64,000 nucleotides of DNA from Elusimicrobiaceae bacterium (GCA_017520185.1 JAFXGO010000030.1:62001-126000); one strand, 5' to 3'. Positions 8,766 to 50,997 are shown, counted from the first letter of the stretch. The notes: generated from the letters alone by a model not told the origin. Numbers and translations: made by a program.

Positions 8766-10943
8766 TTACATGTCACGCAGGTCATTTTCACTGCGCCACG
8801 GATACCAGTAAGCCTCTTGCTCGTTTTGTTTTTCTTCTTTGCGTCCGTCTTTACCACACAATACAGAGATGCGGAAAGCAAAAGACAAATTGTCATTGCG
8901 GTCCCGTACGGTTAACTCACCGATAGCATCATGAAACCGTTTGGTAAAGCGGATCAACTTATTAAAAGAGTCAAAAGATCCACTTTGGATTTGAAAATCC
9001 GTTCCTAAATCCAAAGACCAAGTGGCATTTGGTAAACGCAAGCCAAAATTAGTGGTAAAGGTATAAGCATCGGAAATATTTTTATACAGTGCATAGTCAC
9101 TGCTTTCGGTAGTATCGTAGTTTGTTAAGCCGATGCCTAAATGCTGTCCTTTGATAATAAAATTGGTTTGCGCGATAAATGCTTGGTTCTTTTCTATTAA
9201 ATCATATAAATTCTGCGCAAACAAGTTTATTTTTCCATCGGGGGAGTTGTATCCTGCTTCCAATAAAATAGGCTCTACACGGTGTTTAAGGTGTTGCCAG
9301 GAGTTATTTTGGATATCGTGATTGGCCAAACTAAAACCGGTAGCTAAGCGCACATAGGTATTAAAAGTAGGGCGATAATAATTTTCCAAATACAAGCGGT
9401 TTCTTTCTTCCCCGCGATCTAAAGAGGAAGTATCGGTTTTTAACGTGCCGGTAGAGAGGCGTTTAGTATACTGATAACCAAAATCTAATGTGCCGATAGG
9501 CGTATCAGTCTGCAAGTTTAAGTCCGTACCCACACGCCCGACCCAAGCGGTTTTATCATTATAGTCATCATCATCTAAAGAAACATGCTGATCATAAAAA
9601 ACGCTGGGCAAAAAGGTAAGCCCTTTTGTTAAACGAATAGATTTTTCGGTGGTCCAACGTGCCGAGCCTTGTTTTTTCCACTCTTCTTCCATATGAGACG
9701 TATTATTAAAATTCACTTCCATGCGGTGCGTTAAGCCTAACAACGGGTCTTTGAATGGAAGTAATGTATAATCAAGCTGTGGCATATTTCGCTCTTTGGC
9801 AATAAAATCACCGCGTTGCCAATCAAAAATATCCATTTGCGTATAACTTAAACGCAAGGTGGAGCGGCGGCTTTGGCGGGAAAGAGAAAAATTGGTTTCC
9901 TGATCCGGAGTAAAAATATAAGGATTTCCGCGGAAGAAAGAATCGTTAAAATATGGGTCTGATACCATGCGGAACTGGGTCTGAAATTGATACAAAGCCC
10001 CTTTGTCATTGTTGAAATGATTAGAACTGTCGTACATTTCCCACCAATATCCGCCACGCATACCCCAGCGTTTGGTATCTTGGAGTTGGAAGGGGTGCCC
10101 GTCTAAGGTATATTCTTCGTCTGAGCTGGAGCGGTCATTAATATAATATACTTCACCCGTACCGCGTAAAGTTTCGCTCTCTACGGCCATTAATTCCAAC
10201 CCTAATCCTACGCCGGATTTGGTGTAATAATCTAAATTTACTTTCGGGCGGAAACCGGCTACTTCTCTAAAAACATTGGAAGTTAAAATACCAAAACCGG
10301 TATTGCCACTTTGAGTAAAATCTACATGCGTGGTCCACGGTTTTTGACTGTCTAAAGAACGCCAAAAAACAGGGAGCCACAATACGGGAAAACCGTCTAA
10401 TTTAAATACGGCATTGGTACCAAAAACTCGTTTTTCCGCAGAGACCTTCAAATTGCCCAAAGTGATGGTATAGTGCGGCTCCGGATTACCACAGCAGGTC
10501 AATACGGCCCCTTTTAAACGCTCCGTACCGTCTTTCATAGAAATTTCTTTGGCAGAAATTACGCGCAGAGGGGGGTACTCTGTTTGGATATCCTCTGCGT
10601 AGAAGTCTTTGGTTTTGTAATTAACGGAAACATTATTTCCGCTGACGGTAGCTCCCATCCCTTCCACTGTCATGGGCCCTACGGAGGAAATAGTGGTGTT
10701 TACTTGGTCAAAGGTAATATCTTCCCCTTTGGCGGTGCGAATTTCCCCTTCTTGGGTTTGCTGAACCAGTGTGACATTTCCTTTTAAATTAATTTTTTTG
10801 GCTGCAGGGTCCGCTGTTGCCTCATCTGCGGTAAAGAAAACAAACCCTTTCTCCGCTTGCGGTGAGGGCAGCACATTCTGCTCTGCCCAAAGACAGAGAG
10901 AAGTGAAAGTAAGTAAAAGAAAAAGAAGTGATTGTCTTTTCAT
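8766..10943 (-). CDS. lptD: LPS-assembly outer-membrane protein LptD
   Basis: Large beta-barrel that inserts LPS into the outer leaflet of the outer membrane. A Sec signal peptide (MKRQSLLFLLLTFTSLCLWA) is followed by an OstA/LptA-like jellyroll domain (about residues 30-170, with KKINLKGNVTLVQQTQEG and KGEDITFDQ), then a barrel domain to the end with many alternating aromatic and polar strands and the LptD-type linker VFKLDGFPVLWLPVFWRSLD. At 725 residues it is near the family norm. The ROK kinase stop and this ATG share one base (TAATG), implying translational coupling. No lptE was seen. With lpxA/B/C/D/I in the window it shows the organism makes and exports an LPS-like lipid. Confidence 0.92.
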   Translation of the reverse strand: MKRQSLLFLLLTFTSLCLWAEQNVLPSPQAEKGFVFFTADEATADPAAKKINLKGNVTLVQQTQEGEIRTAKGEDITFDQVNTTISSVGPMTVEGMGATVSGNNVSVNYKTKDFYAEDIQTEYPPLRVISAKEISMKDGTERLKGAVLTCCGNPEPHYTITLGNLKVSAEKRVFGTNAVFKLDGFPVLWLPVFWRSLDSQKPWTTHVDFTQSGNTGFGILTSNVFREVAGFRPKVNLDYYTKSGVGLGLELMAVESETLRGTGEVYYINDRSSSDEEYTLDGHPFQLQDTKRWGMRGGYWWEMYDSSNHFNNDKGALYQFQTQFRMVSDPYFNDSFFRGNPYIFTPDQETNFSLSRQSRRSTLRLSYTQMDIFDWQRGDFIAKERNMPQLDYTLLPFKDPLLGLTHRMEVNFNNTSHMEEEWKKQGSARWTTEKSIRLTKGLTFLPSVFYDQHVSLDDDDYNDKTAWVGRVGTDLNLQTDTPIGTLDFGYQYTKRLSTGTLKTDTSSLDRGEERNRLYLENYYRPTFNTYVRLATGFSLANHDIQNNSWQHLKHRVEPILLEAGYNSPDGKINLFAQNLYDLIEKNQAFIAQTNFIIKGQHLGIGLTNYDTTESSDYALYKNISDAYTFTTNFGLRLPNATWSLDLGTDFQIQSGSFDSFNKLIRFTKRFHDAIGELTVRDRNDNLSFAFRISVLCGKDGRKEEKQNEQEAYWYPWRSENDLRDM

Positions 10944-39676: not shown

Positions 39677-41374
39677 ATGAAGAAAATATTATTGTTTTTC
39701 ATTCTTTTTACAACCGTAGTCGTACATGCGCAAGAAAATTGTGATTTAACAAATCAACTTCCCTTGCAATTAATGCAACAGGAATTAAAGAGAAATTTTA
39801 AAGTACTAAAAAAGCAAAATCCGCCCATTTATTATATGGTCTATACCTATACAAACGGAGAGGAAATTTATATCAATGCCAGCAATGGCGCCATTCAACA
39901 AGAAGTGGTCAAACCGGTGTCAGATATAGAGGTGTCACTTCGGGTTGGAAGCCCTCAAACTGACAACACCCACTCTTTAAGAGGGGAGGACAATGTGGCT
40001 TATGATCTGGCATTGGAAAAAACAGGTTTGCTCTCTGAAGATAATACGGAAGATTTTCTGCATAGTTTGTGGAGACGTACGCATTACTTGGTCAAAACAG
40101 CACAAGAAGATTATATCCGCGTTAAAACAAATGTCCGTTCTCGGGCAGAGAATAAAGACAAGTCTGCTGATTTTGTATTTCCTCCGCAGAGTTTATATTG
40201 TCATGAAGAACCTTTGCAAACATTTGATTTAAATAAAATAAAAGCCTTGTTGACAGAGGCCTCTGCTTTAACTCTGCAAGAAGAAACAGTATTAAAATCT
40301 TCTTTTGTTTTTTCTGTAGAGCAAGGGCATCGCTATTTTGTTGATAGTCGCGGTAGTCGAATCAAAACGCCTTATTCTTATATTAGACTTATTTATTCTT
40401 TGTATGGATTAGGAAAAGACGGAGCAGAAATTGAACGCTTTAAAGATTATAATTTAAAATCTCCTCAGGATATACCCTCTTTTGAGAAGGTAAGCCAAGA
40501 TATTGCTCGTTCCATTTCTGAATTAAAGGCTTTGTCTAAAGCACCGGAAGGAGAATCTGCCAATGTGCCTGTTATTTTAAAAGGTCGCGCGGCTGCAGTA
40601 TTTGTGCATGAAGTTATGGGGCATCGTTTGGAGGGAGACCAATTGAAAGATGCTGAAGACGGGCAAACTTTGTCCGGTAAAGTAGGCCAACAAGTGATTT
40701 CTCCGCTTATTACCATTACCGCCGATCCTACCCTGAAAGAATTTAATCAAGAACCTTTACGCGGAGCGTACGAATATGATGATGAGGGAGTGAAAAGCAG
40801 ACCGGTGGTTTTGGTTGAAAAGGGTGTTTTGCGTAATTTTATGATGCGTAGTTCTCCGATAGCAGGTTTTTCAGTTTCCAATGGACATGGAAGAAAAGAA
40901 AAAGGATTTAAGGCTGCTGCACGTATGAGTGTACTAAGAACTACGGCTTCGGAAACGGTAAACTATGATGAATTGGAAAAATTGCTTTTAGAGCAAATCC
41001 AAAAGCAAAATAAACCCTATGGTTTTATTGTGGAAGATTTGGGCGGCGGTTTTACTTTTACAGGGGCTTCTATGCCACAGAGTTTTAAGTTGGAAACAAA
41101 ACTGGTGTATAAATTGTTTCCCGACGGAAGAAAGGAAGTGGTGCGCGGTTTAGACGTAATTGGCACACCGTTGGTAAGTTTTAACCGTATTATTGCAGCC
41201 GGAAATGACGACGCCATATTTAACGGCAGCTGCGGCAGTATATCCGGTTGGGTGCCTCAAACCAATATTTCTCCTAGCCTATTGTTTGAAAATATGGAGT
41301 TTCAAAAAGCACAAAAAAGTGCTTTTAAGCCGCCCGTGCTTCCGGCCCCGAATTTTAAAAAGGAGGGTAAATAA
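39677..41374 (+). CDS. Exported TldD-like metalloprotease
   Basis: A 565-residue protein with a Sec signal peptide (MKKILLFFILFTTVVVHA) and the C-terminal TldD/PmbA domain. The zinc site is intact: HEVMGHRLEGD with His311, Glu312 and His316, and a candidate third ligand Cys519 in NGSCGSISG, the position where TldD carries its cysteine. Other TldD features are GAYEYDDEGVKSRPVVLVEKG, LRNFMM and IVEDLGGGFTF. In E. coli TldD works in the cytoplasm with TldE to trim small peptides; a signal peptide here implies a periplasmic role. GGAGG precedes the ATG. It is immediately followed by a second TldD-like gene without the zinc motif, suggesting a TldD/TldE-type heterodimer. Confidence 0.86.
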   Translation: MKKILLFFILFTTVVVHAQENCDLTNQLPLQLMQQELKRNFKVLKKQNPPIYYMVYTYTNGEEIYINASNGAIQQEVVKPVSDIEVSLRVGSPQTDNTHSLRGEDNVAYDLALEKTGLLSEDNTEDFLHSLWRRTHYLVKTAQEDYIRVKTNVRSRAENKDKSADFVFPPQSLYCHEEPLQTFDLNKIKALLTEASALTLQEETVLKSSFVFSVEQGHRYFVDSRGSRIKTPYSYIRLIYSLYGLGKDGAEIERFKDYNLKSPQDIPSFEKVSQDIARSISELKALSKAPEGESANVPVILKGRAAAVFVHEVMGHRLEGDQLKDAEDGQTLSGKVGQQVISPLITITADPTLKEFNQEPLRGAYEYDDEGVKSRPVVLVEKGVLRNFMMRSSPIAGFSVSNGHGRKEKGFKAAARMSVLRTTASETVNYDELEKLLLEQIQKQNKPYGFIVEDLGGGFTFTGASMPQSFKLETKLVYKLFPDGRKEVVRGLDVIGTPLVSFNRIIAAGNDDAIFNGSCGSISGWVPQTNISPSLLFENMEFQKAQKSAFKPPVLPAPNFKKEGK

Positions 41375-43045
41375 ATGAAAAGAGTTATTTTGTTTCTGGC
41401 CTTTTTGATTTCCTTATCGCTTTCGGCCCATTCTTTGCCGGAACATGTATATTTTCAGGCGATGAATGATGAACTTATGCGTACCCAAAAACAGTTGCGG
41501 GTAAAAGGCAGTGCTTCTCCTTTTTTTATAGCGTACAAATTGAAAGAGGAACATAAACATCAAGTTTCTGCTTCGTTGGGCTCTGCTTTGCCGGAAAATG
41601 CCCCTACGAATCATCTATCAGCTTTGGTCTATATGTATACGGGCAAAGCGGCTAAAAACAGCTCCGGCTTTGTGCCGATGTTTCAATTTTCTAATAGCGG
41701 GCGGGAGTTTGCGGTAGAATTTGCGAAATATGTGCCTAAAAGTTATGAAGCCATCCGCAGGAAATTGTGGGAGTTAACAGATAAGGCCTATATTTTTGCA
41801 TCTTCTGCTTATGATAAAAAAGAGGTTTATAAAAAAAGAAAAGGCTTACAGGATGAACTTCCTGATTTTAGTAAAGCACCTGTTTCTGCTTACCGGCAGG
41901 AAATACCTGATTTTGAGCCTTTGCCGGCAGATACACAGGCGGTGATTAATCAAATTTCCGCGCAAGGGAAAAAAATTCCTTATTTGGAGCGTTTTGTTGT
42001 TAGAAGAGAGCGGGTGCAAAACCGTTATTATTTTATAGATAGCGAAAAAGATTTTGCCCAATATTTTGTACCGCAAGACTACGTGCATGTGCAGGCCTTA
42101 TTTCGCGGAAAAGAGGGGGATTTTCACAATATCTTTCGCAGTTATAATCTCTCTGATGACCCGCAACAACAAATAAAGCAAATGCAAGAGGCTGCCTCTG
42201 AAATATTGGCAGAAGTAGAAGCACAACACCAGGCAGTACGCGCCAAACAACCGTATGTGGGGCCTGTTTTATTTGAAAAGAAAGCAGCGGTGGATTTTTT
42301 CTTTTTCTTTTTTTATCCGTCTGCCCGTCACAGTAAGTCTCTTTTAAGAGCAGATGACCGAACAGACAACGAAGCAGGCTACTTCAAAGACCGTTTGGGT
42401 ATGAGAGTGATGAGTGCTTTTTTTGATGTCTATGATAAGCCTCTTTTGTCTTATAAAGATGGAATTTATTTATCCGGATTTATGCCGGTAGATGATGAAG
42501 GAGTAGCTGCGGAAAATATACAACTGGTAAAAGATGGAAAGTTAATTGCTTTACCCACGATGAGAAGCCCCATGAAAGGACAAGAGAAAAACAATGGTCA
42601 TGCCAGAGCCAATTATCATATGTTTCCCAGAGCCGGCCTGACAAATCTGTTGTTTGAGGCTAAAGAATCTTTATCTCAAGAGCAAATGCAAGAAAGACTG
42701 TTGCAGCGTTGTCGGGAATTGGAGTTGGAATATTGTTATATTATCCCCTCCTCTTTTGAATATTGGAGAGGGAAAGGGTTGCCGGAGTTAGTACAACGCA
42801 TTTATACAAAAGACGGAAGAAAAGAAGCAGTAAACGGTTTAGAAATAGAAGGTCTTTCTGCCCGTAGTTTGAGAAGCATTTTGGCAGCAGGAAAAGAGTC
42901 GTATGTATTTGGCGATTTTTCAAAATATGAGATGGACGGAGCCAGCCCTATTTCCATTACTGCCCCTTCTATCTTGGTAGATGAAATAGAATTGGTGCCC
43001 GATATGAAAGTGCCCGATACTCCGCCTTCTGTTGATTTGCCATAA
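41375..43045 (+). CDS. Exported TldE-like partner lacking the zinc motif
   Basis: A 556-residue protein with a signal peptide (MKRVILFLAFLISLSLSAHS) and a C-terminal half that aligns by eye with the preceding TldD-like protein: GIYLSGFMPVDDEGVAAENIQLVKDG and RIYTKDGRKEAVNGLEIEG parallel its EYDDEG...VEKG and KLFPDGRKEVVRGLDVIG. At the position of HExxGH it has DFFFFFFYPSARHS (residues 307-320), so no zinc site, and the matching cysteine is also missing. In E. coli the TldE (PmbA) subunit likewise lacks the motif. AGGAGGG at 41361-41367 drives translation and the start follows the previous stop with no gap. A terminator follows at 43047. Confidence 0.8.
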   Translation: MKRVILFLAFLISLSLSAHSLPEHVYFQAMNDELMRTQKQLRVKGSASPFFIAYKLKEEHKHQVSASLGSALPENAPTNHLSALVYMYTGKAAKNSSGFVPMFQFSNSGREFAVEFAKYVPKSYEAIRRKLWELTDKAYIFASSAYDKKEVYKKRKGLQDELPDFSKAPVSAYRQEIPDFEPLPADTQAVINQISAQGKKIPYLERFVVRRERVQNRYYFIDSEKDFAQYFVPQDYVHVQALFRGKEGDFHNIFRSYNLSDDPQQQIKQMQEAASEILAEVEAQHQAVRAKQPYVGPVLFEKKAAVDFFFFFFYPSARHSKSLLRADDRTDNEAGYFKDRLGMRVMSAFFDVYDKPLLSYKDGIYLSGFMPVDDEGVAAENIQLVKDGKLIALPTMRSPMKGQEKNNGHARANYHMFPRAGLTNLLFEAKESLSQEQMQERLLQRCRELELEYCYIIPSSFEYWRGKGLPELVQRIYTKDGRKEAVNGLEIEGLSARSLRSILAAGKESYVFGDFSKYEMDGASPISITAPSILVDEIELVPDMKVPDTPPSVDLP

Positions 43046-43046
43046 T

Positions 43047-43072
43047 AAAACCCCGCCAATCGGCGGGGTTTT
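43047..43072. terminator. Bidirectional terminator
   Basis: AAAACCCCGCC, loop aatc, GGCGGGGTTTT: an 11-bp stem with A/T flanks on both sides. It ends the plus-strand TldD-like pair and the minus-strand six-gene envelope operon; its last base is the first base of the TPR gene's stop complement. Confidence 0.9.
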
Positions 43073-44031
43073 TAATTGAGTAAATGTTGGGCTACTCTGC
43101 GTGCAAAAGAATCGTTGTTGGAATTTTTGATTCTTTTGAGAAGTTCTAAGGCTTGTTGTTTTTTATTTAACTTCATCAAATTTAGATAAATTGTGAAAAG
43201 GGCTAGTTCGTTTTCCGGTTCTAGTTTTAGCACAGTTTGCGCCACTTTAAGAGAATCCTCATATTGTTTTTCTTGATAAAGCCATAATGCTTTAATACTT
43301 TTTAGTTCATTGCGCTGAGGAGCCAAAAAAATGGCTATTTCCAAATCCGACAAGGCATCTTGTGGCATAGAGAGGCCTTTGTATGCGCGCGCACTTAATA
43401 ACCAATAGTCGGCTACAGAAGGTTCCTCCATTTTAGCCATGGTGATATGAATCAAAGCATCATCATAGTTGCGCTGTTTAGAAAAAGTGTATGCATATCT
43501 GGCGCGATTGATGGCGGGAGCTTGCGGATCTAGTTCAAAAAAACGGTCATAATATTCGCGTGCTTTGGAGTAAAACCCCATATCAATATAATTTTCCGCT
43601 TGGCCCGATAAAGCAATTAAATTATTCGGTTCTATTTTTAGGACTTGGTTATATAAATCAATAGATTGATCTGTTAAATCGGTCCGATGATAAAGTTCGG
43701 CGGCAGACAAAAGCAACGGAATATCTTTTTCGTGAAAGGCTAAGGCTTCTTTGTAGGTTTCCAATGCTTTTTCGGGCATGTCTAACTTTTCATAGGTTAA
43801 GCCTAGTAGACGATAGGCTCTTGCTTCACGTCGTTTGATGTTTTTTGTTTTATAAATATAGTCGGAAAGCAGAGCAACGGCTTGTTTATAATCTCCTTGA
43901 TTATAAGTTTCGCGTGCTTGCACAAACTCTTGTCTGTCAGCGGGGCTGATGCCAAACAGTCCCGCTTGTGCAGGGGAAACTACCAAGAAAAAGAAAAAGA
44001 ATAGATGAAAAAGTTTATTTTTTAAGTACAT
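43072..44031 (-). CDS. Exported TPR-repeat protein
   Basis: A 319-residue protein with a very hydrophobic signal peptide (LFHLFFFFFLVVSPAQA) and about eight tetratricopeptide repeats of 34 residues. Examples are AYRLLGLTYEKLDMPEKALE, AELYHRTDLTDQSIDLYNQV, AENYIDMGFYSKAREYYDRF and SARAYKGLSMPQDALSDLEI. It is probably periplasmic and acts as a protein-binding scaffold. It overlaps the patatin gene by 17 nt, so the two are coupled. It is the last gene of the six-gene operon. No specific function can be named. Confidence 0.8.
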   Translation of the reverse strand: MYLKNKLFHLFFFFFLVVSPAQAGLFGISPADRQEFVQARETYNQGDYKQAVALLSDYIYKTKNIKRREARAYRLLGLTYEKLDMPEKALETYKEALAFHEKDIPLLLSAAELYHRTDLTDQSIDLYNQVLKIEPNNLIALSGQAENYIDMGFYSKAREYYDRFFELDPQAPAINRARYAYTFSKQRNYDDALIHITMAKMEEPSVADYWLLSARAYKGLSMPQDALSDLEIAIFLAPQRNELKSIKALWLYQEKQYEDSLKVAQTVLKLEPENELALFTIYLNLMKLNKKQQALELLKRIKNSNNDSFARRVAQHLLN

Positions 44032-44968
44032 GGTCTATTGAAAATAACAGAAGATCTTCCTGTAAAATATTTAAATTTTTGTTGGCCGAGCGAATGCCAA
44101 TCTCTCCGGCTTGATGCAGTTTATCTAATTCCAGCGTGCTGATACCCAATACTCTGTTTTGAATAACAAAATTTGCTTTTTGTGAGGCTTCTTCTATCAT
44201 GGCGGCACCTCTCACATCTCCAATACGCAACAAATAGGCCGCCACCGTTTTAGGTACTTGAGAAGAAAAATCCAATGGAGTCACAGACGCAATAATATAA
44301 TCTGCTCCTTTATTTTTTACCAAATTCACCGGCAAATAGTTTACTACCGCGCCGTCTACCAAATAGCGGTGTCTATACTCAACAGGGGCAAAAACACCCG
44401 GTAAGTTCATGCTGGCTCTGACGGCAATATCTAACGGACCGGAATCAAAAATCACCTGTTCTCCTGTTTTTACATCCATTGCTGCAGTGGCAAAAGGAAT
44501 ATCCAGATCCTCAAAACGCATGTGACCGATTTGGTTTTGGAAAAAGGATTGTAAATTTTGCGAAGAAGGAAGTTTTTGAAGAAAAAGGAATTTTATAACC
44601 CCCATGAGGTTGAAATCGGGTGTTATTTTGTCTATAGTTATATGTTGACCGATATTCCAAAGTTGTTCAGTAGGAAGGCCCGCTGCATACAAAGAGCCAA
44701 TAACAGCCCCCATAGAAGTACCGGCCATCATATCAATGGGCATACCGGCATTATTAAGCACTTCCAGCACGCCCACATGAGCAAAGCCGCGTACGCCGCC
44801 GGCGGAAAGCGCAAGCCCTATTTTGGGCCGTTGGCTGGCAGGGACGGAGATAAATTCCTCCCATAAAAAATCACGCAAAATACCGTCATTTGTCACATCG
44901 GGTAATGCCCACAAGGAAGGTGACAAAGAGAAAAAAATCAAAAATAAAAACCAGCGTAATTTTTTCAT
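44015..44968 (-). CDS. Exported patatin-like phospholipase
   Basis: A 317-residue serine acyl hydrolase with a signal peptide (MKKLRWFLFLIFFSLSPSLWA). The patatin motifs are all present: glycine-rich oxyanion region LALSAGGVRGFAHVGVLE, nucleophile Ser85 in AGTSMGAVIG, and the catalytic Asp205 in YLVDGAVVNYLPV (DG[AG]). Export distinguishes it from cytoplasmic RssA-type proteins and suggests action on envelope lipids or exported lipids. Its neighbours are a TolC-like protein upstream (13 nt gap) and a TPR protein downstream (overlap), which makes joint secretion or envelope-lipid remodelling plausible but unproven. Confidence 0.87.
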   Translation of the reverse strand: MKKLRWFLFLIFFSLSPSLWALPDVTNDGILRDFLWEEFISVPASQRPKIGLALSAGGVRGFAHVGVLEVLNNAGMPIDMMAGTSMGAVIGSLYAAGLPTEQLWNIGQHITIDKITPDFNLMGVIKFLFLQKLPSSQNLQSFFQNQIGHMRFEDLDIPFATAAMDVKTGEQVIFDSGPLDIAVRASMNLPGVFAPVEYRHRYLVDGAVVNYLPVNLVKNKGADYIIASVTPLDFSSQVPKTVAAYLLRIGDVRGAAMIEEASQKANFVIQNRVLGISTLELDKLHQAGEIGIRSANKNLNILQEDLLLFSIDHVLKK

Positions 44969-44981
44969 GAAAAACAGTATT

Positions 44982-46283
44982 TTATAAATCTCTGCCGATG
45001 GCCCATTCCAAAGAAGCCTTAGATGTTAAATTATGCAAAATACTTTGGTAATAATCTTTTCCGCTGTGGAAATAAGCCTCCAACGCTTCCAGCGCGTTTA
45101 AATTTACACGAGAGGTTTGTTGATTTTGGGCCAAAAGTTTTTGTACTTCTTGCCAAGTATTTTGATGGATAGGGACTTCTTTTTGCCAAAAGAGAAAATT
45201 GGCATAGTTTTCTGCCACTTGTACGCGTATTTTATCTTCTATAGCAGCACGACGAAGGGTGCTTTGTTTTTGCTCAGCTTTTCGTTGAGATGTTTGAGAA
45301 GACACGTTGTAGGGGAGCGGTAATTTGACGGCTAAAGAAATTTGTTTGTTTTCATCGTCCAAGTTTTCGGCTCCCAAGCGCTCATAACTGCCGGTTAATA
45401 CTAAATCCGGATAACGGTGCGATAAAGCCAAATCAATGGCCAAATTATCTAATTCCAACGCATAAATAGCTGTTTTTAATTCCGGTCTAAATTCCATAGA
45501 CCATAAGTTAAGGGTGGCTAAATCCAATTTCATTTCTATGGGGGAAAAATCGCCCTTTACTTTTACCGGACTATTCAGTTCTTTGTTTAAACTGACCAAC
45601 ATGGACAGTTGGGCTTTTTGCAATTCATTGGTGGCAATATTTTTTAGAGAGAGCAGTTTGGATAAAGCATACTGCGCTTTGATTTTATCCCAAGAAGAAA
45701 CATTTAATGAACGTGCAAAAGTCTGGGCTTTTAGGTCTACTTGATGAGATAATTCCAAAAGATATTGTGCATATAACAACTGAAAAAAAGATTTTTTAAT
45801 GTCTAATACAACGGCATTTTTAACGGATTCATATTTGCTTTGAACCTGCTTTAAATTGGCTTCGGCCATTTTTAATGCGCCGCGTATTCGACCACCGGAG
45901 TAGAGATATTGTGTGCCGGTCACTCCTACACCAAAAAATTGATGTTTGTCTCCTGTTTCTAATGCGTCATTGTTGGGGATGAGGCGATTGGCCACCGATT
46001 CCGGCAAAACCATCGGATAGTCCAAGTCATACCAAGTGGCAGTGCCTTGTAAAGAAAATTGAGGCAAAAAAAGGAACTTGGCTTGTTTTACTTTTTGCTC
46101 AGCAACGATTACTTCCTGCTGCGCCAGCAAAAAGTCATTGTTATTTTCTAGTCCGATGCGAATGGCATTTTCCAGCGTTAATTCATCATTAATCAAGCTG
46201 GAAAAACGCAAGCCATATTCTTTTTGTGCAACTGCCGGCAAAGCCAAAAGCAGTGCCAAACATAAAAAAGTTAATTTTTTCAT
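44982..46283 (-). CDS. TolC-family outer-membrane efflux protein
   Basis: Outer-membrane channel component of the TolC/OEP type, 433 residues. A signal peptide (MKKLTFLCLALLLALPAVA) is followed by two OEP repeats with long coiled-coil helices: LTLENAIRIGLENNNDFLLAQQEV, the second repeat with STLNLWSMEFRPELKTAIYALE, DLALSHRYPDLVLTGSYERL and LEAYFHSGKDYYQSI. No periplasmic adaptor (HlyD/AcrA type) or pump is in the window, so its partner is elsewhere or it works with the unusual neighbours here. It sits 9 nt after the HAMP-only gene. Confidence 0.86.
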   Translation of the reverse strand: MKKLTFLCLALLLALPAVAQKEYGLRFSSLINDELTLENAIRIGLENNNDFLLAQQEVIVAEQKVKQAKFLFLPQFSLQGTATWYDLDYPMVLPESVANRLIPNNDALETGDKHQFFGVGVTGTQYLYSGGRIRGALKMAEANLKQVQSKYESVKNAVVLDIKKSFFQLLYAQYLLELSHQVDLKAQTFARSLNVSSWDKIKAQYALSKLLSLKNIATNELQKAQLSMLVSLNKELNSPVKVKGDFSPIEMKLDLATLNLWSMEFRPELKTAIYALELDNLAIDLALSHRYPDLVLTGSYERLGAENLDDENKQISLAVKLPLPYNVSSQTSQRKAEQKQSTLRRAAIEDKIRVQVAENYANFLFWQKEVPIHQNTWQEVQKLLAQNQQTSRVNLNALEALEAYFHSGKDYYQSILHNLTSKASLEWAIGRDL

Positions 46284-46292
46284 AAGTCCCCA

Positions 46293-46751
46293 TTACTTCT
46301 TATTTTTATTGATTTCTTCTTCCACGCGGTCCATCATTTTGTTGAAATCGTCTTGCAACTCTGTAAATTGATCTCCTTTGCGCAAGCGGACTCGTTGACT
46401 AAAGTCTCCTTTGGCAATGGCTTTGCAGGTTTGTTCAAAACGATAAACAGGGCCGGCCATTCTGTGAGATAAAATGGCGGAAATTAAAATGACAAAAATG
46501 ACATAGATAATAATTTTATAGATAAATCCGTATGCCAAAGAGGGAAAGTGATCGTATAACGGTTGCAGAAGAACGGGGTGTTGGTCAAAGATATCATTTA
46601 ACGTAAACACCAATTCGAAGGACATAATCAAAAGTCCGGCCAAGACACTTAAGACAATTAAGGTCATGTAGCGGAATTGAAGATTTTTTTTAATAAAAAT
46701 GGTTCTTCTTTTAAATTGAGTTTTCTGGGAGGGGGATTGCTGTGTTTGCAT
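46293..46751 (-). CDS. HAMP-domain-only membrane protein
   Basis: A 152-residue inner-membrane protein with two hydrophobic segments (YMTLIVLSVLAGLLIMSF at about 28-45 and FIYKIIIYVIFVILISAIL at about 76-94), a short periplasmic loop between them, and a HAMP linker directly after the second. The HAMP signature is visible in HRMAGPVYRFEQTCKAI (Pro in helix 1) and AKGDFSQRVRLRKGDQFTELQDDFNKM (helix 2 with DExxxL-like QFTEL). Nothing follows the HAMP: no kinase, cyclase or methyl-accepting domain. It must signal through a partner or act structurally. It lies inside an operon of envelope proteins. Confidence 0.82.
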   Translation of the reverse strand: MQTQQSPSQKTQFKRRTIFIKKNLQFRYMTLIVLSVLAGLLIMSFELVFTLNDIFDQHPVLLQPLYDHFPSLAYGFIYKIIIYVIFVILISAILSHRMAGPVYRFEQTCKAIAKGDFSQRVRLRKGDQFTELQDDFNKMMDRVEEEINKNKK

Positions 46752-46763
46752 GATAGTCCTGAA

Positions 46764-47471
46764 TTAGAAATTGGTGACGTAGCGCAGTTGTAAAATGCGT
46801 TCATTGTCGCTTCCTCTGCCGATCCGGCGAACGGCACCGGTTAAGGTTAAAGCCGGAGAAATGAAAATATTGGCACCTATGTTGAAGCGAGAGTCACGAA
46901 TATTGTTAATATTATCCCATTCTGCCAGGAAAGAAAAATATTCTTTCAAATTCCAAGACATACCGGTGAAGGCGTAAATGTCGTGACGATCAAAATCAGA
47001 TAAATTGGCCCCCAAAGAAAAATTTAAGCCGGGTGTAAAAAGTTCACGAGTTAAGGTGATATATCCGCCCTTGCGGTCATCTAAATAGTCTTTGGTTTTT
47101 TTGTTATAACCATAACGGCGGCCATCATATCCGATAGCAACAGCCGGCAAATACAAACTGCCGTCAAATACTTTCCATTTTACTTGAAAATCAGGATCTA
47201 GTACTTTGATATCATCGGAACTGCCCACCAATTCATAAACGGCCAAAGATACACCGATATTAACTTGTGGTATGACCCCAAAATCCAAACTTTCCATAAT
47301 GGTTCCGTTGGCATAGGAGCGTGTTAACAAAGACGCTTGATATTTATCCAACACATTGGCGGTAGGTACGTCTAAAAGCAAGGTTTCGGGAGATAAAATA
47401 TCAGACTCTTGTGCAAAAATTCCAAAGGGAAATAATAAACAAACGGCTAAAAGTAAAGATTTTTTCAGCAT
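46764..47471 (-). CDS. Probable outer-membrane beta-barrel protein
   Basis: A 235-residue exported protein (signal peptide MLKKSLLLAVCLLFPFGIFA). The mature part is made of alternating short strands with aromatic ends (DFGVIPQVNIGVSLAVYEL, GGYITLTRELFTPGLNFSLG, NIGANIFISPALTLTGAVRR) and ends with the strand LQLRYVTNF; a C-terminal Phe is a typical signal for Bam-mediated insertion. About 10-12 strands are likely. I do not recognise a family beyond this; it somewhat resembles YjbH/GNA-type barrels. It lies 14 nt after the lipoprotein gene. Confidence 0.65.
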   Translation of the reverse strand: MLKKSLLLAVCLLFPFGIFAQESDILSPETLLLDVPTANVLDKYQASLLTRSYANGTIMESLDFGVIPQVNIGVSLAVYELVGSSDDIKVLDPDFQVKWKVFDGSLYLPAVAIGYDGRRYGYNKKTKDYLDDRKGGYITLTRELFTPGLNFSLGANLSDFDRHDIYAFTGMSWNLKEYFSFLAEWDNINNIRDSRFNIGANIFISPALTLTGAVRRIGRGSDNERILQLRYVTNF

Positions 47472-47485
47472 GTTTTAGTTCTCTC

Positions 47486-48046
47486 CTATAACCAAATGCG
47501 AGGGTCTTTTTGTTCCGGTTTTTGAATATAACGGACATTGTGTAAGAAGATAAATTCTCTGGCGGCCATAAAATCATTGCGGTCGCGAGGGAATTCTAAC
47601 TCCACAATGCCTTCGTCCATACGGGAGGTGTCATAGACTATCCCTTTTTGCCAGCGATCCAACTTAGCGATGTCTTTGTCTTGTGTGCGCGGATTATGAT
47701 AATTGCGAAGGACTACTTCCCCTTTGAGTAGTTGTCCGCCGGAAACGGGGGATGTTTTTTCAATAATATCTGAGGAAAAAATAGTTTTTCCTTCGCAAGG
47801 TCCGTTTAAAAAGGTCACTTTAAAGCGCGGGTCATTTTGGGTTGGTTTGCGGTTGATGCGAGCCAAAGAATAAGTGGAATAAGGCTTTCCTTCATTGAGA
47901 CAAGAGGCAAACACATTGTCTCGGAAGTTGCGTTCATAAGAATCGGCACTGCTTTGCCTGTTGTAAGGGGTTTCATCCTTTTTTTCTTGATGACAGGCAA
48001 CTGTGAAAGCAATTACAAAAAGCAAAGGTAAAATAATTTTTTTCAT
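47486..48046 (-). CDS. Unknown lipoprotein
   Basis: A 186-residue predicted lipoprotein (lipobox FTVAC, Cys18) of unknown family. The mature part has two cysteines (ASCLNEG and NGPCEGK) that may form a disulphide, and a beta-rich region with GQLLKGEVVLRNYHNP. ATG 48046 is chosen over the longer frame from 48133 because GGAG lies 8 nt upstream and a clean signal peptide follows. It is the first gene of the six-gene operon, behind a good promoter at 48104-48133. Confidence 0.7.
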   Translation of the reverse strand: MKKIILPLLFVIAFTVACHQEKKDETPYNRQSSADSYERNFRDNVFASCLNEGKPYSTYSLARINRKPTQNDPRFKVTFLNGPCEGKTIFSSDIIEKTSPVSGGQLLKGEVVLRNYHNPRTQDKDIAKLDRWQKGIVYDTSRMDEGIVELEFPRDRNDFMAAREFIFLHNVRYIQKPEQKDPRIWL

Positions 48047-48103
48047 AAAATCTCCATATCCATACATAGAATAAAAACAACAGGTACAAAGACCCTTATT
48101 TTC

Positions 48104-48133
48104 AGTATAACTGTTTTGCTTCTCTTTTGACAA
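48104..48133 (-). promoter_or_regulatory. Promoter of the six-gene envelope operon
   Basis: On the minus strand: TTGTCA (48128-48133), an 18-nt spacer, TATACT (48104-48109). The leader to the first gene is about 50 nt. Confidence 0.7.
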
Positions 48134-48240: not shown

Positions 48241-50160
48241 TTAGAAGAATTCTTTCCATAAGGCTCCATCTTGTCCGGCGTCTAAAGGGTCTAAAGAGTC
48301 TAAAGCAGCTCCCAACAGATCACCGGAAAGGATACTATGCGCTTCTAAGGTTTCAGGTGTGTTTTGTTTGTTTTCATACACTTCTTTCATTCTGCTTAAA
48401 ATTTGCCGATGAAGCATGTCTCCTCTTGTTTCCAGATCAGTAGATCCGTCGTCATTTAATATTCCATGATTTTCAGTATCATCGTAGACAACGAGGGACG
48501 GATTTAATACATCTGACATAGCCACGACCTCTGATACTTGAGGAACAAAATAAACAAATTCCGGTTTTTCAGCATTTTGTTGTTTCAGAGCAAGCATATC
48601 TTCTTTATTATAAGGGACATACTTAAAAAATCCTCTCAACTCCTCCTTGCTTTTTTCTACCTGCTTTCCTTCTTGTTCTTTTTGTGCCAGAAATTCATCT
48701 ATCATCGTGCTGCTATGGCCTAAGGGGTCCCCGTAATATTCCATGCCCGAATATAATACGGTATATTTAAGTTCGGGGTTTCCTCCTAAATCTTTGGCTC
48801 CCACCCAATAGCAGGTTTCTCCATTAGAACAACCTTGTCTCTCCAATACAAAGTCAATCATCTCTTGGGTGGTCTCATCGAGAGATTGTTGTTCCAGCAA
48901 TTTTTGAAACGGGTTATCTTTTGTATGGCCCAACAAAACCATCATATTTAAAGGTTGGGCATCAAAAGCCGCTTCTTTTTCAGGGGTATCTATTTGTAGA
49001 GTTTCTTTTAACGCTTGAATTTTCTCTTTGCCTGCTTTTCTAGCATCATCCTCCGTATCAGGAGGCAAACACTGTCCCGTTGTATTTTCTTTTGTTCTGT
49101 ATAAAGAAGAAGATACATTACCGGAAGATCCATTATCGGAACAAGAGGCATAAATAGTCTTTTCGACTAAATTGTCAAATTCTTTGTCTTGAGCTTTTTC
49201 TCTTAACGATTCCCAATTTTTGTCTTCAACTGCTTGTGCTACGCGGTCTTCATTTTGCTGTTGGTAGGCGTTGGCTTTTTCTTCAAAATCTCTTAATTGT
49301 TGGCCCGACAAAATTTTTCTGGCGGCTTGGATATAACTATCCTTAACATTTTGAAGGGTAGAACCGGGAGATAAAATGTCAAAGAGAGGGTTTGTGTTCC
49401 CTCCGAGTCCAAATTCCCATTCAGAGGTGGAAACATTGGCAGATTTTCCTTTTTTGTAGGTGCTGCCTTGCTTGTGGGTATCTTTTCCTAAGCCGGACGA
49501 GGCAGAAGCCAACAGGTAATCTTTTTCCTGCGGGGCAGCTTTCGGAGTAGCGATATCGTCACTTCCTGTAAAAAAGCTCTTAATCGGCTTCCACAAACGA
49601 GCCCATTTAGAGTCTGGGATAGCCGGATCAGACGTCTGGGCAGATTTAGCGGCATAGCGTGCGGCCCGCTCTTGGCGGATATGACGTTCGTAGGCATTGT
49701 CTCTTAAACTGACTTCGTGCATACCCGGATCGGCAGATTCAGGGACGGTTTGCCGCACTAAAATCCATTCACCGTCTTTATCGATGAAGCCGGTTTCAGT
49801 ATATTCGTAGTCAGTATCTACTTCGGTGCTGTAGTCGAAATTTTTTCCTTCTTCGCCCTCTTTTAGAAAAGCATATTTTTGTTGTTCTTCTGAAGTTAAA
49901 GAGGCCAACATTTCATCATTTACTTCTCTTTGAGGGAGGGGAGCATTTTTTTGTGAATCTCGCTTAAATAAAGCATACACTTTTTTCACCAAACCACTTA
50001 AGGGATTAGAGGTGAAAATTTGCGGGGTTGCTTTTTTCCTATTTATGCTTTCAGAAGCAGCGTTATCCAACAAGGGAAGTAGTAAAAAAAGCAAAATAGC
50101 AGTGCTTAAAGCGATAATAATGATTTTTCCGGCGGTTTTCGCCTTTTGTTTGTTAAGCAT
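48241..50160 (-). CDS. Large membrane-anchored protein of unknown function
   Basis: A 639-residue protein with one N-terminal hydrophobic segment (IIIIALSTAILLFLLLPLLD, about residues 13-32) preceded by Lys residues, so an inner-membrane anchor with the bulk in the periplasm. The mature part is strongly charged and polar, with many Glu/Lys/Gln-rich helical stretches. It has six cysteines grouped as ASCSDNG...QCLPPD and GCSNGETCYW, which could form disulphides, and a segment NPELKYTVLYSGMEYYGDPLGHSS. I do not recognise any family. It has its own well-formed promoter, directly preceded by an inverted motif shared with the region upstream of tdh. Codon use and GC look like those of its neighbours. 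Confidence 0.75.
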   Translation of the reverse strand: MLNKQKAKTAGKIIIIALSTAILLFLLLPLLDNAASESINRKKATPQIFTSNPLSGLVKKVYALFKRDSQKNAPLPQREVNDEMLASLTSEEQQKYAFLKEGEEGKNFDYSTEVDTDYEYTETGFIDKDGEWILVRQTVPESADPGMHEVSLRDNAYERHIRQERAARYAAKSAQTSDPAIPDSKWARLWKPIKSFFTGSDDIATPKAAPQEKDYLLASASSGLGKDTHKQGSTYKKGKSANVSTSEWEFGLGGNTNPLFDILSPGSTLQNVKDSYIQAARKILSGQQLRDFEEKANAYQQQNEDRVAQAVEDKNWESLREKAQDKEFDNLVEKTIYASCSDNGSSGNVSSSLYRTKENTTGQCLPPDTEDDARKAGKEKIQALKETLQIDTPEKEAAFDAQPLNMMVLLGHTKDNPFQKLLEQQSLDETTQEMIDFVLERQGCSNGETCYWVGAKDLGGNPELKYTVLYSGMEYYGDPLGHSSTMIDEFLAQKEQEGKQVEKSKEELRGFFKYVPYNKEDMLALKQQNAEKPEFVYFVPQVSEVVAMSDVLNPSLVVYDDTENHGILNDDGSTDLETRGDMLHRQILSRMKEVYENKQNTPETLEAHSILSGDLLGAALDSLDPLDAGQDGALWKEFF

Positions 50161-50230: not shown

Positions 50231-50251
50231 GACCTATAGTTCAAATAGGAC
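50231..50251. promoter_or_regulatory. Inverted motif GACCTA-N9-TAGGAC
   Basis: GACCTA, 9 nt, TAGGAC: an imperfect palindrome 9 nt upstream of the -35 box of the unknown-protein promoter. A second copy with an 8-nt spacer lies at 54227-54248. The position suits a transcription factor site. Function inferred only. Confidence 0.4.
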
Positions 50252-50997
50252 TATTCGTCTTTTTGAAAAGGACGGCACAGAATATTCCATGCTTTGGCAG
50301 TATGATTGGAAAATTTATTCCACCAAGAGGTTTCTTTGTTCGTGTCGGTTCCTGCAACGGGGGGAAAATAATTTTTGGCATTTAATAGCTTAATCAAATA
50401 GTTGGAAGGCACTGAAAAATTTAAGTTTTGGTTTCCCTCTCCCTTATAGCTGGAAAATGCAACTGAGATTACTGCACCTTCTTTGTTAAATACGGGGCTT
50501 CCGCTGGAGCTGGGGGAAATGGGTGCGCTGATTTGATGCCAAATAATACCATCAGATTTTTTGCGCACTTGGCTAATCAGACCGGAGGTGACGGTGTTTT
50601 GCAAACGGCGCGGATTACCGATAACGGTGATTTCTTCTCCCGGAAGGACATAATCGGAGTTGCCTAAAGAAACGGTGGGTAAATTTTTGCCTTCTATTTT
50701 AATAAGTGCCAAATCCACCTCTCCGGCTTGGACCAATTGTTTGGCTTCGCCCGATATGACACCTGTATTAAAAGTGACATTTAGGTACATGGCTCCTTCC
50801 ACTACGTGCCGACTGGTGGCGATGACGCCGTCTTGCGTGACAACAAAACCTGTGCCGTTAAAGGTGGTGCCGTCTTTTTTGAGCACGTTTACAGCCACGA
50901 TGGCAGGGGAGTTTTCCTCCGCTATTTCCACGTGGCTTTTGGCATAAATCGGCATGTATAAGACAATGGCGGTTATTACACAAAAAAGCAATCTCAT
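50251..50997 (-). CDS. Trypsin-like periplasmic serine protease without PDZ domain
   Basis: A 248-residue exported protease (signal peptide MRLLFCVITAIVLYMPIYA) of the S1C/HtrA type. The catalytic triad is visible as His64 in TSRHVVEG, Asp95 in EVDLALIKI and Ser165 in SPSSSGSPVF (usual GNSGGP). It ends about 35 residues after the protease domain, so there is no PDZ domain, unlike DegP/DegS at 350-470 residues. It probably cleaves periplasmic or envelope proteins. Its stop lies 90 nt upstream of the 639-residue membrane protein gene; that gene has its own promoter in the gap, but readthrough is possible. Confidence 0.86.
   Translation of the reverse strand: MRLLFCVITAIVLYMPIYAKSHVEIAEENSPAIVAVNVLKKDGTTFNGTGFVVTQDGVIATSRHVVEGAMYLNVTFNTGVISGEAKQLVQAGEVDLALIKIEGKNLPTVSLGNSDYVLPGEEITVIGNPRRLQNTVTSGLISQVRKKSDGIIWHQISAPISPSSSGSPVFNKEGAVISVAFSSYKGEGNQNLNFSVPSNYLIKLLNAKNYFPPVAGTDTNKETSWWNKFSNHTAKAWNILCRPFQKDE

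What the first reader, a model, noticed from the sequence alone, without database searches (positions are those of the whole stretch)
43072..48046. Six-gene envelope operon with a HAMP-only protein at its centre
Behind one good promoter (48104-48133) and before one terminator lie a lipoprotein, a beta-barrel candidate, a HAMP-only membrane protein, a TolC-like channel, an exported patatin and an exported TPR protein, with gaps of 14 nt or less or overlaps. All are envelope proteins. No pump, adaptor or kinase is present. The set could move or remodel envelope lipid, with the patatin cutting lipid and the TolC-like protein as exit.
Basis: partly seen in the sequence, partly recalled or inferred. 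Interest (0 to 1): 0.66.

Follow-up and report, generated by a model that had tools for sequence, protein, structure and literature searches.

The report
Pumpless TolC channel paired with patatin
In a little-studied bacterial phylum (Elusimicrobiota), an outer-membrane channel of the TolC family that has lost the parts that dock to a drug pump is always encoded next to an exported fat-cutting enzyme and a scaffold protein, which suggests a dedicated outer-membrane lipid-maintenance unit rather than an efflux pump.

Summary
In detail: six same-strand genes (LP, BB, HAMP, TolC, patatin, TPR), gaps 9-14 nt or a 17-nt overlap, behind a promoter conserved in relatives and before a strong terminator. 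The six are not one evolved unit. LP occurs only in this family; BB sits elsewhere phylum-wide, next to accA; the HAMP-only protein belongs to a floating family with unrelated neighbours. The conserved unit is TolC-patatin-TPR: in all 73 Elusimicrobiota patatin loci examined, TolC lies directly upstream, and TPR follows in 71. It was ancestrally placed argG-argH-[triad]-lysA-dapF-dapA, and was deleted precisely as a block in one genus. The TolC lacks the hairpin-tip glycine of pump-linked TolC proteins and has shorter periplasmic hairpins (68/71 residues; pump-linked 75/75 in 25 of 25; triad 0 of 45). All three recognised adaptors already sit in pump operons with their own TolC-family protein. 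The patatin is closest to the PlpD patatin domain, keeps its Ser-Asp dyad, but lacks PlpD's barrel. Most likely it is a periplasmic, outer-membrane-linked phospholipase module, a split analogue of PlpD. The catalytic, anchoring and channel roles are inferred.

The parts
48104..48133 (-). Promoter TTGTCA-N18-TATACT of the operon
   Evidence: 10 of 12 consensus match; -35, spacer and -10 conserved in the window and four relatives
47486..48046 (-). LP: predicted lipoprotein, found only in this family
   Evidence: ORF, lipobox cysteine invariant, 34 of 34 family genomes in the 120-genome sample and none convincingly outside; model pLDDT 82, weak tandem Tudor/SH3-like match
46764..47471 (-). BB: predicted 12-strand outer-membrane beta-barrel, weak YjbH similarity
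   Evidence: ORF, AF2 pLDDT 87 with 12 strands, FapF best fold; found in 183 of 198 phylum genomes, nearly always single copy, elsewhere mostly beside accA
46293..46751 (-). HAMP-only inner-membrane protein
   Evidence: PF00672 33 bits vs cut-off 25, no output domain; phylum-wide family with unrelated neighbours outside the class
44982..46283 (-). TolC-family outer-membrane channel without pump; core of triad
   Evidence: PF02321 4.1e-32; tips shortened and tip Gly lost
44015..44968 (-). Exported PlpD-type patatin without barrel; core of triad
   Evidence: PF01734 2e-29; S85/D205 invariant; best PDB match PlpD 5fqu 2.3e-60 with the family profile
43072..44031 (-). Exported TPR protein; core of triad
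   Evidence: TPR Pfam hits; downstream of patatin in 71 of 73 Elusimicrobiota loci
43047..43072 (-). Intrinsic terminator, shared by the convergent neighbouring gene
   Evidence: RNA fold -20.3 kcal/mol, z -4.63

Best explanation
The functional unit is the TolC-patatin-TPR triad. Shown: the three genes are contiguous in every informative Elusimicrobiota locus examined, the patatin dyad is intact, and the TolC has lost the tip features kept by every pump-linked TolC homologue measured in the phylum. Inferred: the TolC trimer is an outer-membrane station, not a pump exit; [quoted passage not shown] hydrolysis products may leave through the TolC pore. LP, BB and HAMP are later co-transcribed neighbours, not required parts.
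For: Phylum-wide order argG-argH-TolC-PAT-TPR-lysA-dapF-dapA in outgroups; 73/73 patatin loci with TolC upstream, 71/73 with TPR. Precise loss of the block in G038: HAMP stops at 9351 and dapF starts at 9352, BB and PFK kept. Of the 15 patatin-less genomes in the TolC sample, 8 have no TolC hit and 7 only weak hits. Tip loss: hairpins 68/71 in class members, down to 49/45 in outgroups, versus 75/75 in 25 of 25 pump-linked homologues. The 3 recognised adaptors are already used by pump operons. Nearest solved relative of the patatin is PlpD, whose patatin domain is periplasmic and whose deletion raises phospholipids (PMC11116518). OMPLA/PldA absent in 79 of 80 genomes.
Against: No experiment and no predicted complex. 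Gene order here is generally slow to change (argGH, lysA-dapF-dapA and accA-BB are also kept), so synteny alone is weak evidence for physical partnership. Enzyme activity is inferred from two residues and homology; export is inferred from sequence. The TolC pore as product exit has no direct evidence. Several reduced Endomicrobium-like genomes lack the patatin and TolC altogether. PldA is absent in almost all genomes, with or without the triad, so its absence does not discriminate.
Confidence: 0.42

Rival explanations
1. Positional neighbours only: the three genes stay together because gene order drifts slowly in this phylum; the patatin and the TolC have separate jobs.
For: Unrelated housekeeping neighbours (argG, argH, lysA, dapF, dapA) are also kept over the same distances, as is accA-BB.
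Against: The argGH, lysA and dap neighbours were lost or replaced in different lineages while the triad was never split in 73 loci; precise block deletion in G038; co-absence of patatin and TolC; a TolC that has lost its pump tips needs some other role.
Confidence: 0.25
2. The triad TolC is a shared exit duct of one or more tripartite pumps encoded elsewhere, as TolC is in E. coli.
For: It is a true OEP-family protein with both repeats, and the genome has MacAB-like and RND pumps.
Against: Each recognised adaptor lies in an operon with its own TolC-family protein. The tip glycine and the 75/75 hairpin length kept in 25/25 pump homologues are not found together in any of 45 triad TolCs; both hairpins are cut by up to 30 residues in some outgroups.
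Confidence: 0.12
3. The patatin is a secreted enzyme that leaves the cell through the TolC channel in two steps (Sec, then TolC).
For: Sec-type signal-peptide-like N-terminus and an adjacent outer-membrane channel; TolC-dependent release of periplasmic peptides is known in E. coli (own knowledge).
Against: No energy source or adaptor in the locus; a folded enzyme of about 32 kDa is unlikely to pass; the PlpD patatin domain was shown to stay in the periplasm (PMC11116518).
Confidence: 0.1
4. The whole six-gene set is one envelope-remodelling machine with the HAMP protein as its inner-membrane sensor.
For: One conserved promoter and terminator; in the window genus the only soluble-enzyme gene of the older cluster, phosphofructokinase, was lost and the envelope genes stayed contiguous.
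Against: LP in one family only; BB elsewhere beside accA in the rest of the phylum; HAMP elsewhere beside panC, nadB or comEC-like genes; triad kept where HAMP is absent.
Confidence: 0.11

Closest known systems
PlpD / patatin-Omp85 (PL-Omp85) proteins of Pseudomonas and Fusobacterium
   Same: Same patatin subtype (family profile vs 5fqu, 2.3e-60), exported, Ser-Asp dyad, enzyme linked to an outer-membrane barrel protein; PlpD patatin domain is periplasmic and affects phospholipid levels (PMC11116518).
   Different: No POTRA and no 16-strand barrel in the same chain; the protein ends at 317 aa. The outer-membrane partner would be a separate TolC-family trimer, with a TPR protein.
TolC / OEP outer-membrane factors of tripartite pumps
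   Same: Two OEP repeats over the full length (PF02321).
   Different: No pump or adaptor in the locus, tip glycine motif lost, periplasmic hairpins shortened.
Outer-membrane phospholipase A (PldA/OMPLA)
   Same: Proposed role: hydrolysis of outer-membrane phospholipid.
   Different: Unrelated fold; absent in 79 of 80 genomes of the phylum.
YjbH (exopolysaccharide operon yjbEFGH)
   Same: BB has weak similarity to the N-terminal part of YjbH.
   Different: Below Pfam cut-off (19.7 vs 24 bits), about a third of the length, no yjb neighbours seen.
HAMP signal transducers (histidine kinases, chemoreceptors)
   Same: Membrane-anchored HAMP domain.
   Different: No kinase, cyclase or receptor output domain; ends just after HAMP.

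Membership tests
OEP / TolC superfamily | Two OEP repeats | tested here: met
   PF02321 with 2 stretches, 112 bits vs cut-off 22; 25 of 25 class members match
Tripartite-pump outer-membrane factor | Adaptor and pump in the operon, or an unpaired adaptor in the genome | tested here: not met
   None in the operon; the 3 PF16576 adaptors all sit in other pump operons with their own OEP. Adaptors too divergent for PF16576 could be missed
Tripartite-pump outer-membrane factor | 75-residue hairpins with tip glycine, as in all pump-linked homologues of the phylum | tested here: not met
   Triad 68/71 or shorter, 0 of 45 with 75/75; pump-linked 25 of 25
PL-Omp85 (PlpD, type Vd) | Patatin domain with GxSxG serine and DG[AG] aspartate | tested here: met
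   S85 and D205 invariant in 25 sequences; PlpD best PDB match
PL-Omp85 (PlpD, type Vd) | POTRA plus 16-strand barrel in the same chain | tested here: not met
   Only PF01734 matched significantly; protein ends at 317 aa
Patatin phospholipase | Phospholipase activity | not testable with these tools
   Needs purified protein
YjbH | Pfam PF06082 above cut-off | tested here: not met
   19.7 bits vs 24; 12 of 35 members match weakly
HAMP signal transducer | HAMP domain | tested here: met
   33 bits vs cut-off 25
HAMP signal transducer | Output domain in the same protein | tested here: not met
   No other significant Pfam domain; 152 aa

The most novel reading that the evidence does not exclude
Elusimicrobiota carry an ancient, phylum-wide outer-membrane lipid module in which a TolC-family trimer has been repurposed: cut loose from pumps, it serves as the outer-membrane dock and/or product exit for a periplasmic PlpD-type patatin with a TPR scaffold, that is, a PlpD-like machine made of separate chains with a different barrel.
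Probability: 0.35. Interest if true: 0.8.

Novelty: new variant of a known kind. Interest (0 to 1): 0.57.

Why it matters
TolC-family proteins are treated as exit ducts of pumps and type I secretion. A whole lineage in which one of them has systematically lost the adaptor-docking end and travels with a lipid-cutting enzyme would be a second use of the TolC fold. It also gives a concrete candidate for outer-membrane phospholipid turnover in a phylum that mostly lacks PldA, and a testable parallel to PlpD, whose role in outer-membrane lipid homeostasis is only recently proposed.

Tried and rejected
1) HAMP protein as the core: rejected, because outside the class it sits beside unrelated genes and the triad persists without it. 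2) Gene fusion of TolC and patatin as direct proof of partnership: none found in the loci held; long ORFs in L125, L128 and L129 were overlapping frames or an argH-TolC read-through. 3) An orphan pump or adaptor for the triad TolC: none found in the own genome. 4) An MCE/Mla system as obligate partner: MlaD/MCE is present in 79 of 80 genomes, including ones without the patatin (G038, G061, G123), so its distribution does not match. 5) The triad outside the phylum: the nearest foreign patatins (about 66 loci) had no adjacent OEP gene; one locus had an OEP several genes away. 6) Literature: no description of a TolC-patatin-TPR set found in four searches; no paper for 'HAMP-only'. The library lacks most subscription papers. 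7) Pattern-count statistics for the promoter were uninformative; conservation was used instead.

Full report
WHAT IS THERE. The six ORFs are on the minus strand at 43072-48046 with gaps of 14, 12, 9 and 13 nt and a 17-nt overlap. Pfam gives OEP/TolC (4.1e-32), patatin (2e-29), TPR and a lone HAMP domain (7.6e-8); BB has only a sub-threshold YjbH hit and LP none. BB is modelled as a 12-strand barrel (pLDDT 87; best fold match FapF). LP is modelled as two small beta domains with weak Tudor/Agenet-like matches. The promoter 48133-48104 is unremarkable by pattern counting but conserved between the window and four relatives together with a leader AATAAGGG. The terminator 43047-43072 is strong. The genome is an Elusimicrobiaceae MAG of 1.4 Mb; a close relative in the named collection is isolate RGIG4559 from a roe deer rectum.

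WHICH GENES BELONG TOGETHER. Regions of 60 relatives chosen by their HAMP homologue show BB-HAMP-TolC-PAT-TPR in order in families f1, f2, f7 and f8 of the same class. In f2 and f7, and in some f1 genera, a 6-phosphofructokinase gene lies between BB and HAMP, and dapF and dapA follow TPR in the f2 loci read in full. That phosphofructokinase has been lost from the window genus, where only a ~43% paralogue remains. LP is found only in family f1. In other families of the class and in other classes HAMP sits alone beside comEC-like, panC, nadB or ribosomal genes. BB is found in 183 of 198 genomes, nearly always as one copy, and outside these families mostly lies beside accA. By contrast TolC and the patatin are adjacent across the phylum; in outgroups the order is argG-argH-TolC-PAT-TPR-lysA-dapF-dapA (not every locus shows every flanking gene). 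Counting all loci held, 73 of 73 Elusimicrobiota patatin loci have TolC directly upstream and 71 have TPR downstream; of the two others, one is at a contig end and one has a very divergent TPR. Most of these loci were fetched by searches with HAMP or patatin, but 20 were picked because TolC and patatin hits were close, so the count is not an unbiased sample. In G038, of the same order, the triad is missing exactly between HAMP (ending 9351) and dapF (starting 9352) while BB, PFK and HAMP remain. Of 15 genomes without the patatin in the TolC sample, 8 have no TolC-family hit and 7 only weak ones, one of which (G038) was checked to be a pump protein. So the window operon is a recent assembly around an old three-gene core.

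THE TOLC IS NOT A PUMP TOLC. The genome has three other OEP genes, each inside a complete pump operon (MacAB-type, RND, RND), and the only three HlyD_D23 adaptors belong to those operons. I measured the two periplasmic hairpins between fixed landmarks on an alignment. All 25 pump-family OEPs measured in the phylum (23 with a pump or adaptor gene seen nearby, the rest at contig edges or beside a partial match) have exactly 75 residues in both hairpins and a glycine at the tip. All 25 class triad TolCs have 67-69 and 70-72, and the 20 outgroup triad TolCs have 49-72 and 45-75, none 75/75; the tip motif is gone from the first hairpin in nearly all. That the adaptor docks at this end is established for tripartite pumps (PMC8277102). 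Loss of the docking end across a phylum is the strongest single indication that this TolC works without a pump.

THE PATATIN. The Ser-Asp dyad (S85, D205) is invariant. With the family profile the best solved relative is the patatin domain of PlpD (2.3e-60). PlpD is one chain of patatin, POTRA and 16-strand barrel; its patatin domain stays in the periplasm and its deletion raises phospholipids (PMC11116518). The nearest patatins outside the phylum in a genome scan are mostly ~750-aa chains, a length that fits PlpD, and none of these loci has an OEP gene adjacent. The window protein has no barrel. PldA is absent in 79 of 80 genomes. MCE is present in 79 of 80, including genomes without the triad.

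MECHANISM, AND WHAT IS INFERRED. Shown: gene unit, intact dyad, tip loss, no unpaired recognised adaptor. Inferred from sequence: export of all three proteins. Inferred from homology: phospholipase activity, TolC trimer in the outer membrane. Inferred without direct evidence: that TolC and/or TPR hold the patatin at the outer membrane and that products leave through the pore. The main alternative is that slow gene-order drift alone keeps the genes together; the independent changes of flanking genes, the block deletion and the altered TolC argue against it but do not exclude it.

NOVELTY. The parts are known families; the combination and the pumpless TolC were not found described in the open-access papers searched. 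I rate it a new variant of a known kind.

Noticed in passing
L122:6400-8241, L238:5291-7177, L230:6710-8596: Single ORFs of 613-628 aa joining an N-terminal TetR DNA-binding domain to a full OEP outer-membrane channel through a signal-peptide-like hydrophobic stretch, in an operon with an adaptor and RND pump, in three genomes from two classes. A repressor fused to an exported protein it may control would be remarkable.
   Followed up: partly
39677-43045: Two TldD/PmbA-like genes, convergent to the operon, both with signal-peptide-like N-termini; the first keeps an HExxxH motif, the second seems to lack it. TldD/PmbA are usually cytosolic.
   Followed up: no
L203-L218 (BB region): The BB barrel gene is next to accA (then fba or pfk) in most of the other families read, an unexplained link of an outer-membrane protein with fatty-acid synthesis genes.
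   Followed up: partly
L075:5475-10042, L081:5570-6807, L080:8255-8752, L082:5833-6366: HAMP-only proteins in other classes occur in two or three copies near each other or next to panC and nadB.
   Followed up: no
48241-50160: 639-aa protein upstream of the operon with no significant Pfam or NCBIfam match, kept next to a trypsin-like peptidase (50251-50997) in the genus.
   Followed up: no
48046-48103: Conserved leader (AATAAGGGTTTTTG...CCCG) between the promoter and the LP start codon.
   Followed up: no
L128: Record titled 'Clostridia bacterium CSMAG_496' has Elusimicrobiota-type TolC-patatin-TPR gene order; probably a mislabelled MAG.
   Followed up: no
L219:5551-9772, L220:5069-10549, L222:3382-8841: Single MCE operon (MlaE, MlaF, long ~430-aa MlaD) conserved between alr and radA in the three genomes read; MCE gene present in 79 of 80 genomes.
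   Followed up: partly
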